Of a DNA stretch of 64,000 nucleotides, positions 17,155 through 47,494 are shown piece by piece. Origin of the DNA: Sphaerochaeta sp. Its GTDB lineage: Bacteria; Spirochaetota; Spirochaetia; Sphaerochaetales; Sphaerochaetaceae. Where the stretch lies: positions 186,001 to 250,000 of the forward strand of contig JAKVPA010000001.1 in assembly GCA_022482495.1 (NCBI GenBank), given 5' to 3'. The notes below the pieces were generated by a model. The model did not search any database. It worked only from the letters and a program-made list of their open reading frames with translations, and was not told the origin of the DNA. The translations under genes and the position numbers were made by a program. How positions within the stretch are numbered: position 1 is the stretch's first letter; each line of letters opens with the position of its first letter.

Positions 17155-17183
17155 TTGACTTTGTCCTTCCCCACCGGTACGCT
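17155..17183 (+). promoter_or_regulatory. Candidate promoter of btuFCD leader
   Basis: TTGACT (17155-17160) and TACGCT (17178-17183) are separated by 17 bases and lie directly upstream of the cobalamin aptamer, placing the transcript start near 17190. Confidence 0.4.
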
Positions 17184-17184
17184 G

Positions 17185-17290
17185 AAAGAGCCAGCACGGG
17201 GGAAGTCGGTAATGCCGCGCGGTCCCGCCACTGTACAAGTCAGGAGACCCTGCCGGCATGACGCACGCCTACGACAGATAGGCAAAGGGG
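17185..17290 (+). promoter_or_regulatory. Cobalamin riboswitch upstream of btuFCD
   Basis: The leader contains the conserved cobalamin-aptamer elements in order: GGGGGAAGTCGGTAATGCCG, the B12 core CCCGCCACTGT (GCCACTG at 17227-17233), and AGTCAGGAGACCCTGCC. A short stem GCCTA...TAGGC precedes the start region and may form part of the expression platform close to the AAAGGGG ribosome site. Expected to switch off btuFCD when adenosylcobalamin is plentiful. Confidence 0.93.
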
Positions 17291-35939: not shown

Positions 35940-36335
35940 ATGGTCATCAAGGAAGCGGTCGAAATGTATCTGGAAACGATTCTCGTGCTGAGCAAGGAAC
36001 TTGAGCACGTCCGTTCCCTTGATGTCGCCGTCCGCATGGGATACTCCAAACCGACGATCAGCGAGCAGATGAAGACGTTGAAGGAGAACGGTCTGGTCCG
36101 AATGGACGAGAACAACTACATCTATCTCACCCCGCGAGGCAAGGAGATCGCCGACCGGACCTACGAACGCCATGTGATGATCACCAAGATGTTCAAGAAC
36201 ATCGGCGTCAGCCCGGTCACCGCGGAACAGGACGCCTGCCGCATCGAACACTACATCAGCGAAGAGACCTTCGACTGCATGAAGGCGTTCTTCGCCAAAG
36301 AGGAAGGCCTGGACCTCAACGGATCACAACACTGA
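35940..36335 (+). CDS. DtxR/MntR-family metal-dependent regulator
   Basis: 131 residues: winged helix (about 1-70) plus metal-binding dimerisation domain, without the SH3-like C-terminal domain. E-R-H near residue 77 and D-A-C-R-I-E-H near 100 match the metal ligands of DtxR/MntR. GAGG precedes the ATG at 35940, and TTGCAT/TATACT gives a promoter with 18-base spacing. Position opposite ferritin suggests iron or manganese sensing; the metal is not determined. The 3' end overlaps nrdG by 20 bases. Confidence 0.88.
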   Translation: MVIKEAVEMYLETILVLSKELEHVRSLDVAVRMGYSKPTISEQMKTLKENGLVRMDENNYIYLTPRGKEIADRTYERHVMITKMFKNIGVSPVTAEQDACRIEHYISEETFDCMKAFFAKEEGLDLNGSQH

Positions 36336-36990
36336 CATCCGGGCTGAGCGCCTTTGCAAGCTCTTCCAGCTCCTCATCTGAAAAAGAAGACCATGCCCCC
36401 GCTTTCTTGTCCAACGTGACCTTGGGGTTGAACCGTTGCAGCACGTACCGCTTCGCCCCATGGATCCACGTCCCGATGGAACGGATATCCTCCGTGGTGA
36501 GCAGCTCCTTCACACAGGTGGTTCGGAATTCGTACGGAACCGACCCACCAAGCAGCAGGGAAACGGAAGCCTCCACTCGGGAGGCGGGGATTCCAGCCAC
36601 CCGGAGATATCCCTCACGATCCGCCTTGATGTCCATCGCCACGTAATCCAACAGGCCATCAGAGAAGAGCGCGGAGAGCATCCACGGATAGCTTCCGTTG
36701 GTATCCAGCTTGACCCGGAAACCCATCTCCTTGATGGTACGCAGGAACCCGGGAAGATCGTCCTGCATGCAGGGCTCCCCCCCACTGACCACTACACCGT
36801 CGACCAGATCCTTTCTCTCCCGTAACCACCCAACCACATCCTCTTCGGACAGGGGAGGTTCCTCCGCCCGTACCAGCGTCGGATTGTGGCAGTACGGACA
36901 GCGGCAGTCACAGCCCATGGTGAAGACCGTGGCAGCCACAACGGAGGGAAAGTTGACCAGGTCGACGGGTTGGAACCCGCCGATACGCAT
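36316..36990 (-). CDS. nrdG: Anaerobic ribonucleotide reductase activating protein (radical SAM)
   Basis: 224-residue radical SAM activase that installs the glycyl radical on NrdD. The 4Fe-4S motif C-x3-C-x2-C is in C-D-C-R-C-P-Y-C, and S-G-G-E-P follows for SAM binding. The start at 36990 shares one base with the nrdD stop (TGATG) and has GAGGAG upstream. Confidence 0.92.
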   Translation of the reverse strand: MRIGGFQPVDLVNFPSVVAATVFTMGCDCRCPYCHNPTLVRAEEPPLSEEDVVGWLRERKDLVDGVVVSGGEPCMQDDLPGFLRTIKEMGFRVKLDTNGSYPWMLSALFSDGLLDYVAMDIKADREGYLRVAGIPASRVEASVSLLLGGSVPYEFRTTCVKELLTTEDIRSIGTWIHGAKRYVLQRFNPKVTLDKKAGAWSSFSDEELEELAKALSPDVSVVIR

Positions 36991-39342
36991 CAGATCACGC
37001 TCCTCGCCCACTGGGTGATGGCCCCCACCCCCTCATACCGGCCGGAAGGAGTGACCAGTACCGGGACGGTCATGATCCCATAGGAACGGGAAAGATCGGC
37101 ATGGGAAGCAGCATCCACCACGACATAGGAGATTTCCGCCTTGTCCAACGCGGCTTTCACCACCTTGCAGTTCGGACAGGTCGGCGTGGTGAACAGCAGG
37201 ATCTTCTCCACCTTTGCCATCATCTCTGGTTTGTTCTTCTTCGGCTTTGCCACGTTGACGGTTGGTTCCGACGCATGAAGGACATCATACGTCTTCCGTT
37301 CCCGGAACTCCTCCGCCTTGCCGTCATTCCAGTTCTGGACCGGCCGGTAGTAGCCGGTGATCCGGGAGTACACTTCCGTTTTCTTGTGGCAGACCGGGCA
37401 CTCCCACACTTCGCCGGCGATGTACCCATGATCAGGACAGACGGAGTACGTCGGACTGATCGTATAGTACGGAAGGCGGTAGTGCTCGGCGATCTTGCGC
37501 ACCAGGCTGGCGGTGCTCCGCCAATCGGAAAGCTTTTCGCCAAGGAACACATGGAACACCGTACCGGAGGTGTATTTCACCTGGAACTGGTCCTCGATGT
37601 CCATCGCTTTGAACAGATCATCGGTGAACCCGACGGGAAGATGGGAGCTGTTGGTGTAGTACGGAACCGATCCACGCGAAGCGGTGATGATGTCCGGATA
37701 CCGCTCCTTGTCATGTTTGGCAAGACGGAACGCCGTGCTTTCCGCAGGGGTAGCCTCCAGGTTGTACAGATCCCCGTACTGCTCCTGGTAGTCGGACAAG
37801 CGGCTACGCATATGATCCAGCACCCTATTGGCGAACGCCTGTGCCTCAGGCTGGGTGAGATCCTCTCCGATCCAGCGGGCGTTCAGGCACGCCTCATTCA
37901 TCCCCACCAGGCCGATGGTGCTGAAGTGGTTGTTGAACGTACCGAGGTACCGCTTGGTGTACGGGTACAACCCCGCCTCCAAAAACCGGTTGATCGTCGT
38001 CCGTTTGGTCTTCAGGCTCCGCGCGGCGATGTCCATCAATTTGTCCAGCCGGGTGAAGAAATCGGCCTCATCGCTTGCCAGATACCCCAGACGCGGCATG
38101 TTCAGCGTCACCACGCCGATGGAACCGGTCGACTCCCCGCTACCGAAGAATCCGCCGCCCTTCTTGCGCAGTTCACGGAGATCCAGCCGGAGCCGGCAGC
38201 ACATCGAACGGACATCGGAAGGCTTCATGTCGCTGTTGATGTAGTTGCTGAAGTACGGAGTGCCGTATTTCATCGTCATCTCGAACAAAAGCCGGTTGTT
38301 CTCCGACTCGGACCAATCGAAATCCTTGGTGATGGAATAGGTCGGGATGGGATACTGGAACCCGCGGCCGTTGGCGTCTCCCCCGATCATCGTTTCCAGG
38401 AACGCCTTGTTGACCATGTCCATCTCCGCCTTGCAATCCCCGTAGGTGAAGGAGGCTTCCTTGCCGCCGATGACTGCCTTCTGGTCCTTCAGATCTTCCG
38501 GCACCGTCCAGTCCAGCGTGATGTTGGAGAACGGAGCCTGGGTGCCCCAGCGGGACGGCGTGTTGACGCCGAAGACGAACGACTCGATGCACTGGCGGGT
38601 CTCCGCGTAGGAGAGATGGTCTGCCTTTACGAACGACGCGAGGTATGTATCAAACGAACTGAACGCCTGGGCGCCAGCCCATTCGTTCTGCATGATGCCG
38701 ATGAAGTTAACCATCTGGTTGCACAACGTGGAAAGATGCTTCGCCGGAGACGAGGATATCTTGCCCTCCACTCCTCCCAGGCCATTGGTGATCAACTGTT
38801 TCAGGCTCCAGCCGGCACAGTAGCCGGAGAGCATGGACAGATCGTGCAGATGCAGATCGGCGTTCCGGTGGGCGTCGGCCACTTCCTTGTCGTAGATCTG
38901 GCTGAGCCAGTAGTTCGCCGTGATGGCGCCGCTGTTGGAGAGGATCAAGGCCGCCGATGCTGTAATTCACCGTGCTGTTTTCTTTTACCCGCCAGTCATC
39001 AGCGTGCAGGTAGCTGTCCACCAGTTTGCGGTAGTCAAGCATGGTCTTTTCGGCGGCTCTGGCGTTCTCATGCTGTTTGCGGTACAGGATGTACGCTTTG
39101 GCGACATCATGATAGCCGGAGACGGACAACGCCGTTTCCACGCTGTCCTGGATATCCTCCACGGAAATGATGCCATCCATTACTTTGGGGGCGAAATCCG
39201 CCGAGGACCGCAAGGCAAGCAACGTGATGATGTCTTGGTTTGTGGGTTTGTCAGTCGCGACGAACGCTTTCTCAATGGCCCGTTCAATCTTGTGGATGTC
39301 AAAATCCACCACTGACCCGTTTCGTTTCAAAACGTGGTACAT
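36990..39342 (-). pseudogene. nrdD: Anaerobic ribonucleoside-triphosphate reductase with C-terminal redoxin domain, one frameshift
   Basis: Reduces NTPs to dNTPs anaerobically. About 783 residues once one base is removed near 38947-38948, where S-I-G-G-L continues as I-L-S-N-S-G-A-I in the next frame. Order: ATP-cone (about 1-90), class III barrel, zinc site (V-C-P-D-H and C-P-V-C), glycyl-radical loop R-I-T-G-Y-Y-R, then about 75 extra residues with T-P-T-C-P-N-C and a cis-Pro T-V-P-V-L, a glutaredoxin-like domain. The redoxin may be the built-in electron donor. The break is a single extra T in a two-T run and could be a sequencing error. A cobalamin-riboswitch-like leader precedes it. Confidence 0.88.
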
Positions 39343-39371
39343 GGTATGCTCCTAAGTCTCGTTAGTTTCAA

Positions 39372-39470
39372 AGGCTCTCGTGGCGACCCGGCTGTACGGT
39401 TGCGGACCAGTGAGGGAATTGCACCCTGCTTCTCCCGAAAGCACCCCCAGTATATGCTGACTTCCTGCTG
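39372..39470 (-). promoter_or_regulatory. Cobalamin riboswitch upstream of nrdDG
   Basis: Read on the minus strand the leader contains GGGGTGCTTTCGGGAGAAGC, then AGGGTGCAATTCCCTCACTG, GTCCGCAACCGTACAG and CCGGGTCGCCAC. These align in order with the cobalamin aptamer elements seen at 17185-17290 (GGGAAgcCGGTgagAATCCGG, CCCGCcACTGT, AGtCaGG). The AGGAG ribosome site for nrdD follows about 20 bases downstream. B12 riboswitches are known to repress B12-independent isozymes, which fits class III reductase. Less canonical than the btu aptamer. Confidence 0.68.
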
Positions 39471-39556
39471 GTGTCTACTATCTGTAGCGTATGATTTGTA
39501 AATTATCCCAGATATAGCGGTATAGAAAGAAGATACCATATTTTCCCTTGGAGAAA

Positions 39557-44951: not shown

Positions 44952-45099
44952 GGTGATGCTGGTGGCAGGAACCGGAGAGCGGGCAGCACCCGCAACCGGT
45001 TCCACATCCTTTGGACCGTTTCCGGTCCTTCAGGATCTTTCGGATCACCAGCGCCACCACCGCCGCAAGGGCGATGGTGATGATGATGGTGGCGGCCAT
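44944..45099 (-). CDS. FeoB-associated Cys-rich membrane protein
   Basis: 51-residue peptide: one membrane segment (I-I-I-T-I-A-L-A-A-V-V-A-L-V-I), then K-G-C-G-T-G-C-G-C-C and a His-rich tail H-Q-H-H-H-E. Matches the FeoB-associated Cys-rich family that accompanies FeoB and may deliver or bind iron. Shares one base with the feoB stop (TAATG). Confidence 0.88.
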   Translation of the reverse strand: MAATIIITIALAAVVALVIRKILKDRKRSKGCGTGCGCCPLSGSCHQHHHE

Positions 45100-47258
45100 T
45101 ACGCTTTCACCTTTACCGTCGTGGTAAGCTTTTCGCTTTCCTTGTACGGCCTCAGCAGCAGGTACAGGATCAAGGCGACGTTCAGGAAAGCGACGATCGT
45201 GCCGATCCCAAAGTGGCCTTGTCCGAACAACAACCCAAACTGGTAGATGCACAGGCTGATGATGTAGGCGAACACACACTGGTAGCCGACGGCGAACCAG
45301 GTCCACTTGGCGCTGTTCATCTCACGCTTCATGGCGCCGATGGCGGCGAAGCATGGAGCACAGAGCAGGTTGAACACCAGGTAGGAATAGGCGGCAAGCG
45401 GCGTAAACGCGGCCTGAAGCTGACCCCAGATCTCTGCGCCGTTCTCTTCGACTTCACTGAAGCCGTACAGGATGCCGAACGTACCGACGACGTTCTCCTT
45501 GGCGATCAAACCGGTGATGGTAGCCACGGCAGCCTTCCAGTTTCCCCAGCCAAGCGGGCGGAACAGCCAGGCGATCGCATTGCCGATGTAAGCCAGAATG
45601 CTGTGGTCCATCTCCATCTGGTCAAGCATCCGCCACTGGCCATCGACCCCCCCGAAGTATGAGGTGAACCAGACGAGGATCGTGGCAAGGAGAATCACCG
45701 TTCCGGCTTTCTTGATGAAGCTGGAAGCACGTTCCCACGTGGAGCGGAGCACACCGCTGACCGTCGGCCAGTGGTAGGCGGGAAGCTCCATGACGAACGG
45801 GGCGGGATCGCCGCTGAACATCGCCGTCTCCTTCAGCATGATGCCGCTGATGATGATGGCCGCGATTCCAACGAAGTAAGCGCTCGGTGCGACCCAGCTG
45901 GCGCCGCCGAACATGGCGCCCGCGATCAAGGCGATGATGGGCAGTTTCGCGCCACAGGGGATGAACGTCGTGGTCATGATGGTCATTCTGCGGTCACGTT
46001 CGTTCTCAATGGTACGGGAAGCCATGATGCCCGGCACTCCACAACCGCTGCCGATCAACATCGGGATGAACGATTTGCCGGACAGTCCGAACTTGCGGAA
46101 GATACGGTCAAGGATGAACGCGATGCGCGCCATGTACCCGCACTGTTCCAGGAATGCCAGGAACAGGAACAGGACGATCATCTGCGGGACGAAGCCGAGG
46201 ACGGCTCCAACACCGCTGACGATGCCGTCGACCAAAAGGCCCTGCAGCCACGCGGCCACGCCCGTGTTTTCCAGCAAGCCTGCCAAGCCAGGAATGATCC
46301 ATTCACCAAACAACGTGTCATTGACTCAGTCGGTCAGCAGACTTCCCACCGTGGTGATGGAAACGTAGTACACCAGCCACATCACCGCGGCGAAGATCGG
46401 GATTGCCAGCCAGCGGTTGGTCACCACCCGGTCGATCTTGTCGCTTGTCGTCATGCTGGGCTGGTGCCGCTTGATGTAGCATCCCCCGATGATCTGCGCG
46501 ACGACGGCGTACCGCTCGCTGGTGATGATGCTCTTGGCATCGTCATCCATCTCTTTCTCACAGGCGGCGATGTCTTTCTCAATATGGGCGATCAATTCCG
46601 GCTGGAGCTTCAGCGAATCCATCACCTTCTCATCGCGCTCGAACAGCTTGATGGCGAACCAGCGCTGCTGGTTCTCGGGAAGGGCGTGCACCGTCGCTTC
46701 CTCGATGTGGGCGATGGCATGTTCCACACTGCCGGAGAAGGTATGCCGGGGAACGGGAAGTTTGCCGGAGCGTGCCATTTCGATGGCTTTTTCCGTCGCT
46801 TCCTTCAACCCCGTCTCCTTCAATGCGGAAATGGCGACCACCGGGCAGCCAAGATCCTCTGAGAGATGGTGCAGATCCAGTTTGTCCCCCTGCTTTTCCA
46901 CCAGGTCGGACATGTTGACGGCGCAGACCATCGGGATGCCGAGTTCCAGAAGCTGGGTGGTGAGGAACAGGTTCCGTTCCAGGTTGGTGCCATCAATGAT
47001 GTTGATGATGGCGTTGGGCCGCTCTCCGATCAAATAGTTCCGCGCAACCACTTCCTCAAGGGTATACGGCGAGAGGGAATAAATGCCGGGAAGGTCCGTG
47101 ATGATCACGTCCTTGTGCCCCTTCAGGCCACCTTCCTTCTTCTCCACCGTAACGCCGGGCCAGTTTCCCACGTACTGGTTGGAACCGGTCAGCGCGTTGA
47201 ACAATGTCGTCTTACCGGAGTTCGGGTTTCCGGCAAGCGCAATCCGTATCTTATCCAT
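45099..47258 (-). pseudogene. feoB: Ferrous-iron transporter FeoB, in-frame TGA at codon 311
   Basis: 719-codon Fe2+ transporter with N-terminal G domain (G-N-P-N-S-G-K-T-T near residue 9), a helical spacer and the polytopic membrane domain. A TGA at 46326-46328 interrupts S-L-L-T-D-[stop]-V-N-D-T-L-F-G-E-W, at a position where FeoB proteins usually have Trp (TGG to TGA). The frame is otherwise intact. The start at 47258 has AAGGAG upstream, preferred to 47276. Either a real nonsense mutation, a base-call error, or low-level read-through; other genes here use TGA as a normal stop. Confidence 0.9.
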
Positions 47259-47272
47259 CTCTATCTCCTTGC

Positions 47273-47494
47273 TCATTCAACTTCGATGTTCTGAGAGTCA
47301 CCCTTACGCAGGGAAAGCTCATACCCACGCACCGTCAACTCAACCGGATCACCCAGCGGGGCGACTTTCCTGATGTACAGCTTCGCTCCCTTGATGATCC
47401 CCATGTCCATGATGCGCTGCTTCAGCGCACCTTCCCCGTGGATCTTCACCACGGTGACCGTTTCTCCTACCTTCACATCCTTCAGCGTTCTCAT
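47273..47494 (-). CDS. feoA: FeoA protein (second copy)
   Basis: 73-residue SH3-like FeoA protein (D-M-G-I-I-K-G, L-G-D-P-V-E-L-T-V-R-G-Y-x-L-S-L-R). Predicted to bind the FeoB cytoplasmic domain. GAGGGGAG precedes the ATG; it lies 10 bases after the first feoA gene. Confidence 0.92.
   Translation of the reverse strand: MRTLKDVKVGETVTVVKIHGEGALKQRIMDMGIIKGAKLYIRKVAPLGDPVELTVRGYELSLRKGDSQNIEVE

What the first reader, a model, noticed from the sequence alone, without database searches (positions are those of the whole stretch)
39372..39470. Class III ribonucleotide reductase appears to be under a cobalamin riboswitch
The nrdD leader, on the minus strand, carries cobalamin-aptamer-like segments in the right order and spacing, parallel to the unmistakable aptamer upstream of btuFCD in the same window. 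Known B12 riboswitches repress B12-independent isozymes. This predicts a B12-dependent class II reductase elsewhere in the genome and B12-dependent switching of dNTP synthesis. The leader is less canonical than the btu aptamer, so it may be a divergent subclass.
Basis: partly seen in the sequence, partly recalled or inferred. Interest (0 to 1): 0.7.

Follow-up and report, generated by a model that had tools for sequence, protein, structure and literature searches.

The report
B12 riboswitch before anaerobic ribonucleotide reductase
The messenger RNA for an oxygen-sensitive DNA-building-block enzyme (class III ribonucleotide reductase) in this spirochaete starts with a short vitamin-B12-sensing RNA, which very likely shuts the enzyme off when B12 is available for the B12-dependent version that the genome also encodes; this kind of switch was already predicted in other bacteria in 2004.

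Summary
Window 39373-39450 (-) is a compact cobalamin aptamer: the best AdoCbl-II (RF01689) match in the genome (28.9 bits, E about 1e-4), though below Rfam's 36.5-bit cut-off. A covariance model built without this sequence scores it 48.1 bits (E 1.4e-15), above the window's btuF aptamer (30.2). All 19 invariant core positions are kept; P4 and P6 covary across 14 sequences. A promoter would start the RNA at stem P1; degenerate NrdR boxes lie upstream. The predicted B12-dependent NrdJ is in the genome. In the same family 28 genomes carry canonical cobalamin riboswitches directly before nrdD, co-occurring with nrdJ (27/35 with nrdJ, counting this genome, versus 2/84 without). Two same-genus species carry the same short aptamer before a different nrdD paralogue. 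Most likely function: translational repression of NrdD by adenosylcobalamin; ligand, direction and the Shine-Dalgarno step are inferred. B12 control of nrdDG was published for Desulfovibrio/Desulfuromonas (2004), Propionibacterium acnes and Chlorobium, so this is a new member of a known kind. nrdD and nrdJ each carry a one-base frame break, probably assembly errors.

The parts
39505..39520 (-). degenerate NrdR box 1 (CCGCTATATCTGGGAT)
   Evidence: aligned to NrdR boxes of same-genus nrdD leaders; weak PWM score 2.5
39475..39490 (-). degenerate NrdR box 2 (ACGCTACAGATAGTAG; reverse complement CTACTATCTGTAGCGT), 30 bp from box 1 and overlapping the -35
   Evidence: third best PWM score of 127,970 places in the window (7.89); aligned with relatives; nrdR present in genome
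39472..39477 (-). -35 element TAGACA
   Evidence: same place in same-genus leaders
39449..39454 (-). -10 element TATACT, 17-bp spacer; predicted transcript start about 39442, at the foot of stem P1
39373..39450 (-). cobalamin (AdoCbl-II-like) aptamer, as matched by R1; RF01689 match 39375-39441
39374..39442 (-). stem P1: GCUUUCG (39442-39436) with CGAGAGC (39380-39374), continued by GG/CC
   Evidence: read from the sequence; same-genus UUUCCGAG/CUCGGGAAA pairs at the same place
39413..39427 (-). hairpin P4: AGGG-UGCAAUU-CCCU
   Evidence: 100% paired with covariation in 14 sequences
39399..39408 (-). L5 region GGUCCGCAAC (kissing-loop side)
   Evidence: alignment with cobalamin riboswitches
39388..39399 (-). 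hairpin P6: CCG-UACAGC-CGG
   Evidence: middle pair C-G against U-A and G-C in relatives
39352..39365 (-). candidate P13 hairpin CUAA-CGAGAC-UUAG overlapping the Shine-Dalgarno (AGGAG 39353-39349)
   Evidence: weak: possible 4-bp kiss GACU/GGUC no better than shuffles (474/1000); same position as the better supported hairpin in G001/G002 (17/1000)
38707..39342 (-). nrdD, 5' reading frame (ATP cone and start of the catalytic domain)
   Evidence: frame break near 38945
36990..38948 (-). nrdD, 3' reading frame (glycyl radical domain plus C-terminal glutaredoxin-like domain)
   Evidence: NF006126/TIGR02487 matches
36316..37011 (-). nrdG-type radical SAM activase
   Evidence: TIGR02495
17158..17270 (+). 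canonical cobalamin riboswitch before btuF (comparison)
   Evidence: RF00174 36.6 bits; R1 30.2 bits

Best explanation
The 5' leader of nrdD is a compact cobalamin riboswitch of the short AdoCbl-II-like form. Transcription starts at about 39442 from a promoter overlapped by degenerate NrdR boxes, so the RNA begins with stem P1. When the corrinoid coenzyme (most likely adenosylcobalamin) is abundant it binds the P3-P6 core, loop L5 docks on a hairpin next to the start codon, and the Shine-Dalgarno AGGAG is hidden, so NrdD translation falls and the B12-dependent NrdJ makes the deoxynucleotides. When B12 is scarce NrdD is made. Shown here: the aptamer, its covariation, the promoter-like elements, the presence of nrdJ and nrdR, and recurrence of B12 riboswitches on nrdD in relatives. 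Inferred: ligand, off-switch direction and translational mechanism (no terminator found).
For: RF01689 full-length match, best in genome. Model without this sequence: 48.1 bits, E 1.4e-15. 19 of 19 invariant core columns kept. P4 and P6 pair in 98 of 98 cells, covariation score 0.673 against 0.110 in shuffles, 0/500. NrdJ in genome. Same-family genomes with canonical RF00174 directly before nrdD: 28; association with nrdJ 27/35 versus 2/84, Fisher p 2e-17, not corrected for phylogeny, with within-genus contrasts (g9: G027 has both, G010 neither; g7: G025 both, G008 has no nrdJ and no switch before nrdD). The same short aptamer stands before a second nrdD in both same-genus genomes. In other Spirochaetia AdoCbl-II stands before class I nrdB and before metE, other B12-independent isozymes. 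Promoter and no terminator.
Against: Below Rfam gathering scores. Direct orthologues of this nrdD in the same genus and 40 further loci retrieved with this NrdD (mostly Firmicutes) lack any cobalamin match. The P13/L13 kissing partner is no better than chance in this sequence. Folding energy is not unusual. nrdD as assembled is frame-broken.
Confidence: 0.88

Rival explanations
1. A cobalamin riboswitch whose aptamer is real but whose switching is decayed: a relic no longer coupled to the start codon, the gene now being run by NrdR.
For: No better-than-chance L13 partner here, while G001/G002 have one; NrdR boxes and nrdR present; orthologues in the genus lack the element.
Against: All invariant core bases kept and P6 changed by a compensatory pair, which a relic would not be expected to show; the boxes for NrdR are themselves degenerate.
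Confidence: 0.07
2. A cobalamin-type aptamer that senses another corrinoid (methyl- or hydroxocobalamin, or a non-benzimidazole cobamide) or acts as an on-switch.
For: Short cobalamin riboswitches differ in upper-ligand preference (own knowledge), riboswitches of the class respond to several corrinoids (PMC9600662), and an activating corrinoid riboswitch is known (title of PMC10653944).
Against: NrdJ uses adenosylcobalamin, and the off-switch is the logic for B12-independent isozymes; nothing here points to an activating platform.
Confidence: 0.04
3. Chance resemblance, or an FMN riboswitch instead.
For: A weak RF00050 match of 20.1 bits to the same bases.
Against: The FMN score is far below its cut-off of 66.2 and lacks most of the model; the cobalamin models score E 1e-4 and 1e-15 with covariation.
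Confidence: 0.01

Closest known systems
B12-element (cobalamin riboswitch) before nrdDG in Desulfovibrio vulgaris and Desulfuromonas (Rodionov et al. 2004, PMC545781)
   Same: Class III reductase under a B12 riboswitch with NrdJ elsewhere in the genome; same proposed logic
   Different: Other phylum; the paper calls these B12-elements, their length class was not compared here
Propionibacterium acnes nrdDG and nrdAB cobalamin riboswitches with NrdR boxes (PMC3848588)
   Same: B12 riboswitch plus NrdR boxes on nrdDG, with nrdJ
   Different: There much transcription of nrdAB ends in the leader; here no terminator is seen
Rfam RF01689 AdoCbl-II riboswitch
   Same: Compact core without long peripheral arms, full-length match
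   Different: 28.9 bits against the cut-off of 36.5; outer helix reorganised (GCUUUCGGG/CC(A)CGAGAGC)
RF00174 cobalamin riboswitches before nrdD in the same bacterial family (G021, G022, G016, G033, G004, G005, G024, G027, G025 and others)
   Same: Same gene function, same place, also downstream of NrdR boxes
   Different: Long P6 arm and GCCAGAAGACC-type 3' part; most stand before another nrdD type (about 52% identical), two (G027, G025) before the orthologous type

Membership tests
Cobalamin riboswitch clan CL00101 (as a kind) | conserved core: GAAG..GGUG..AA.UCC..CACUG..C.GCAAC.GU.A.AG.C.G | tested here: met
   19 of 19 invariant columns of 13 relatives kept; R1 48.1 bits
Cobalamin riboswitch clan CL00101 (as a kind) | P4 and P6 hairpins supported by covariation | tested here: met
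   100% of cells paired, 0/500 shuffles
Cobalamin riboswitch clan CL00101 (as a kind) | L5-L13 kissing loop with the expression platform | tested here: inconclusive
   4-bp candidate, 474/1000 shuffles as good; same-genus relatives 5 bp, 17/1000
Cobalamin riboswitch clan CL00101 (as a kind) | binds a corrinoid and changes expression | not testable with these tools
   needs binding and reporter assays
RF01689 AdoCbl-II | score at or above the curated gathering score (36.5 bits) | tested here: not met
   28.9 bits; the same-genus copies reach 37.0 and 35.3
RF00174 Cobalamin (long form) | score at or above the gathering score (31.5 bits) | tested here: not met
   no match at this place
Class III ribonucleotide reductase NrdD | NrdD family profile over its cut-off | tested here: met
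   TIGR02487 511 bits against 326 and NF006126 986 against 548, on the 3' frame
B12-independent isozyme switch | B12-dependent counterpart in the same genome | tested here: met
   NrdJ pieces at G000:C2:15157-16579 (-), frame-broken

The most novel reading that the evidence does not exclude
Within one genus the same short promoter-plus-aptamer leader sits on two non-orthologous nrdD genes: on the main nrdD in this genome, and on a second, distantly related nrdD in the two sister species, whose main nrdD keeps the promoter and NrdR boxes but has no aptamer. This could mean that the switch was exchanged between paralogues or re-acquired, so that B12 control follows the enzyme function rather than the gene.
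Probability: 0.35. Interest if true: 0.35.

Novelty: new member of a known kind. Interest (0 to 1): 0.25.

Why it matters
It adds Spirochaetia to the bacteria in which vitamin B12 is predicted to choose between B12-dependent and B12-free ribonucleotide reductases, and shows that Rfam's standard thresholds overlook short cobalamin aptamers in this role. The presence of the switch on nrdD tracks the presence of nrdJ across about 120 related genomes, a genomic test of the isozyme-replacement idea.

Tried and rejected
Thermodynamic folding of the leader: uninformative (z +1.4). FMN riboswitch as the identity: 20.1 bits against 66.2, rejected. Intrinsic terminator in the leader: none, so transcriptional attenuation is not favoured. 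A kissing-loop partner in this leader: not better than shuffles. Cobalamin riboswitches before similar nrdD genes in other phyla: none in 40 further loci scanned. I first took four AdoCbl-II-led genes in other Spirochaetia (L199, L209, L211, L213) for nrdD; their sequences are class I nrdB with an N-terminal ATP cone, by inspection, so the row names are wrong and those right. A first nrdD search failed because of the frame break.

Full report
What was checked. The leader of nrdD on the minus strand was read and compared with all Rfam families. At curated cut-offs only the btuF leader at 17158-17270 is a cobalamin riboswitch. With the E-value threshold, 39375-39441 (-) matches AdoCbl-II (RF01689) end to end with 28.9 bits, E 9.9e-5, against a cut-off of 36.5; over the whole 2.25-Mb genome it is the best RF01689 place, E 1.0e-4.

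An independent test. Thirteen short cobalamin aptamers of other Spirochaetia, found by RF01689, were aligned without this sequence and made into a covariance model. It finds 39373-39450 (-) with 48.1 bits, E 1.4e-15 (rough calibration), ahead of the btuF aptamer at 30.2 bits. All 19 columns that are invariant in the other thirteen are kept. P4 (AGGG/CCCU here; GAGG/CCUC, CCGG/CCGG and others elsewhere) and P6 (CCG/CGG here; CUG/CAG, CGG/CCG elsewhere) pair in all 14 sequences, covariation score 0.673 against 0.110 for shuffles (0 of 500) and at most 0.121 when slid. The caveat is that related rows are not independent.

Anatomy. A sigma-70-like promoter TAGACA-17-TATACT (39477-39449) is followed after about 7 nt by GCUUUCGGG, the 5' side of stem P1, so the RNA would begin with the aptamer. 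Just upstream, two degenerate NrdR boxes 30 bp apart lie at 39505-39520 and 39475-39490, the second overlapping the -35; nrdR is in the genome. After P1 comes CUAACGAGACUUAGGAG, a possible P13 hairpin that overlaps the Shine-Dalgarno sequence, then AUG at 39342. In the same-genus relatives the corresponding hairpin CCA-CGUAYAC-UGG can kiss L5 (GUACG) with 5 pairs, with G-U against G-C between the two species; that is unusual for shuffles (17/1000), but the equivalent here (4 pairs) is not (474/1000). No terminator was found. Translation control is therefore the likeliest mechanism, and its last step is the least supported.

Genome context. nrdD is class III with a C-terminal glutaredoxin-like domain, followed by nrdG. 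B12 riboswitches also precede btuF in the window and a TonB-dependent receptor on contig 4.

Relatives. Among 139 family genomes, canonical RF00174 riboswitches lie directly before nrdD in 28, by comparing coordinates; those read in full also carry NrdR boxes just upstream. Among 119 genomes with nrdD, the switch is there in 27 of 35 with nrdJ (this genome included) and 2 of 84 without (both incomplete genomes), Fisher p 2e-17, not corrected for shared descent; two genera (g7, g9) show the contrast inside the genus. In other Spirochaetia AdoCbl-II elements precede class I nrdB with an ATP cone (G214, G164, G303, G313) and metE (G041, G060) (gene names by inspection).

The odd part. In the two same-genus genomes the direct orthologue of this nrdD (78% identical) has the same promoter and clear NrdR boxes but no aptamer. 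There the short aptamer stands before a second, distantly related nrdD with its own nrdG, a gene that the nrdD search did not find in this genome. The switch appears to follow the function, by exchange between paralogues, loss or re-acquisition; the direction cannot be told from three genomes.

What is known. B12-elements before nrdDG with nrdJ elsewhere, and the same logic, were reported for Desulfovibrio and Desulfuromonas in 2004 (PMC545781), for Propionibacterium acnes with NrdR boxes (PMC3848588) and for Chlorobium nrdD (PMC8620254). This is therefore a new member of a known kind, in a short-aptamer form below Rfam's cut-off.

A caution. nrdD (near 38945) and nrdJ each carry a one-base frame break relative to intact copies in relatives. 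The searches run here found no other reductase (class I was not searched for separately), and feoB also looks split, so assembly errors are the likely cause; reads would settle it.

Noticed in passing
window 38707-39342 and 36990-38948: nrdD is split over two frames by a one-base break near 38945; relatives have intact copies.
   Followed up: yes
L095 (G000:C2:13500-18500): The nrdJ of the genome is also split over two frames by a one-base break; with nrdD broken too, assembly errors are more likely than loss of both reductases.
   Followed up: partly
window 45099-46313 and 46326-47276: feoB appears split into two adjacent frames, a further sign of indel errors in this assembly (judged from the ORF translations only).
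   Followed up: no
L096, L097: Sister species carry a second nrdD-nrdG under NrdR boxes plus an AdoCbl-II aptamer, which the nrdD search did not find in this genome.
   Followed up: partly
L199, L209, L211, L213: Class I nrdB with an N-terminal ATP cone under an AdoCbl-II aptamer in other Spirochaetia families.
   Followed up: partly
L203, L216: metE under an AdoCbl-II aptamer in other Spirochaetia.
   Followed up: no
L215, L221: AdoCbl-II aptamer before a corrinoid-protein (methyltransferase-like) gene.
   Followed up: no
L001 (G000 contig 4, 80985-81158 -): Strong RF00174 riboswitch (76.8 bits) before a TonB-dependent receptor, probably btuB.
   Followed up: partly
window 36990-37300: NrdD carries a C-terminal glutaredoxin-like domain fused in frame (residues about 582-644 of the 3' frame).
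   Followed up: no
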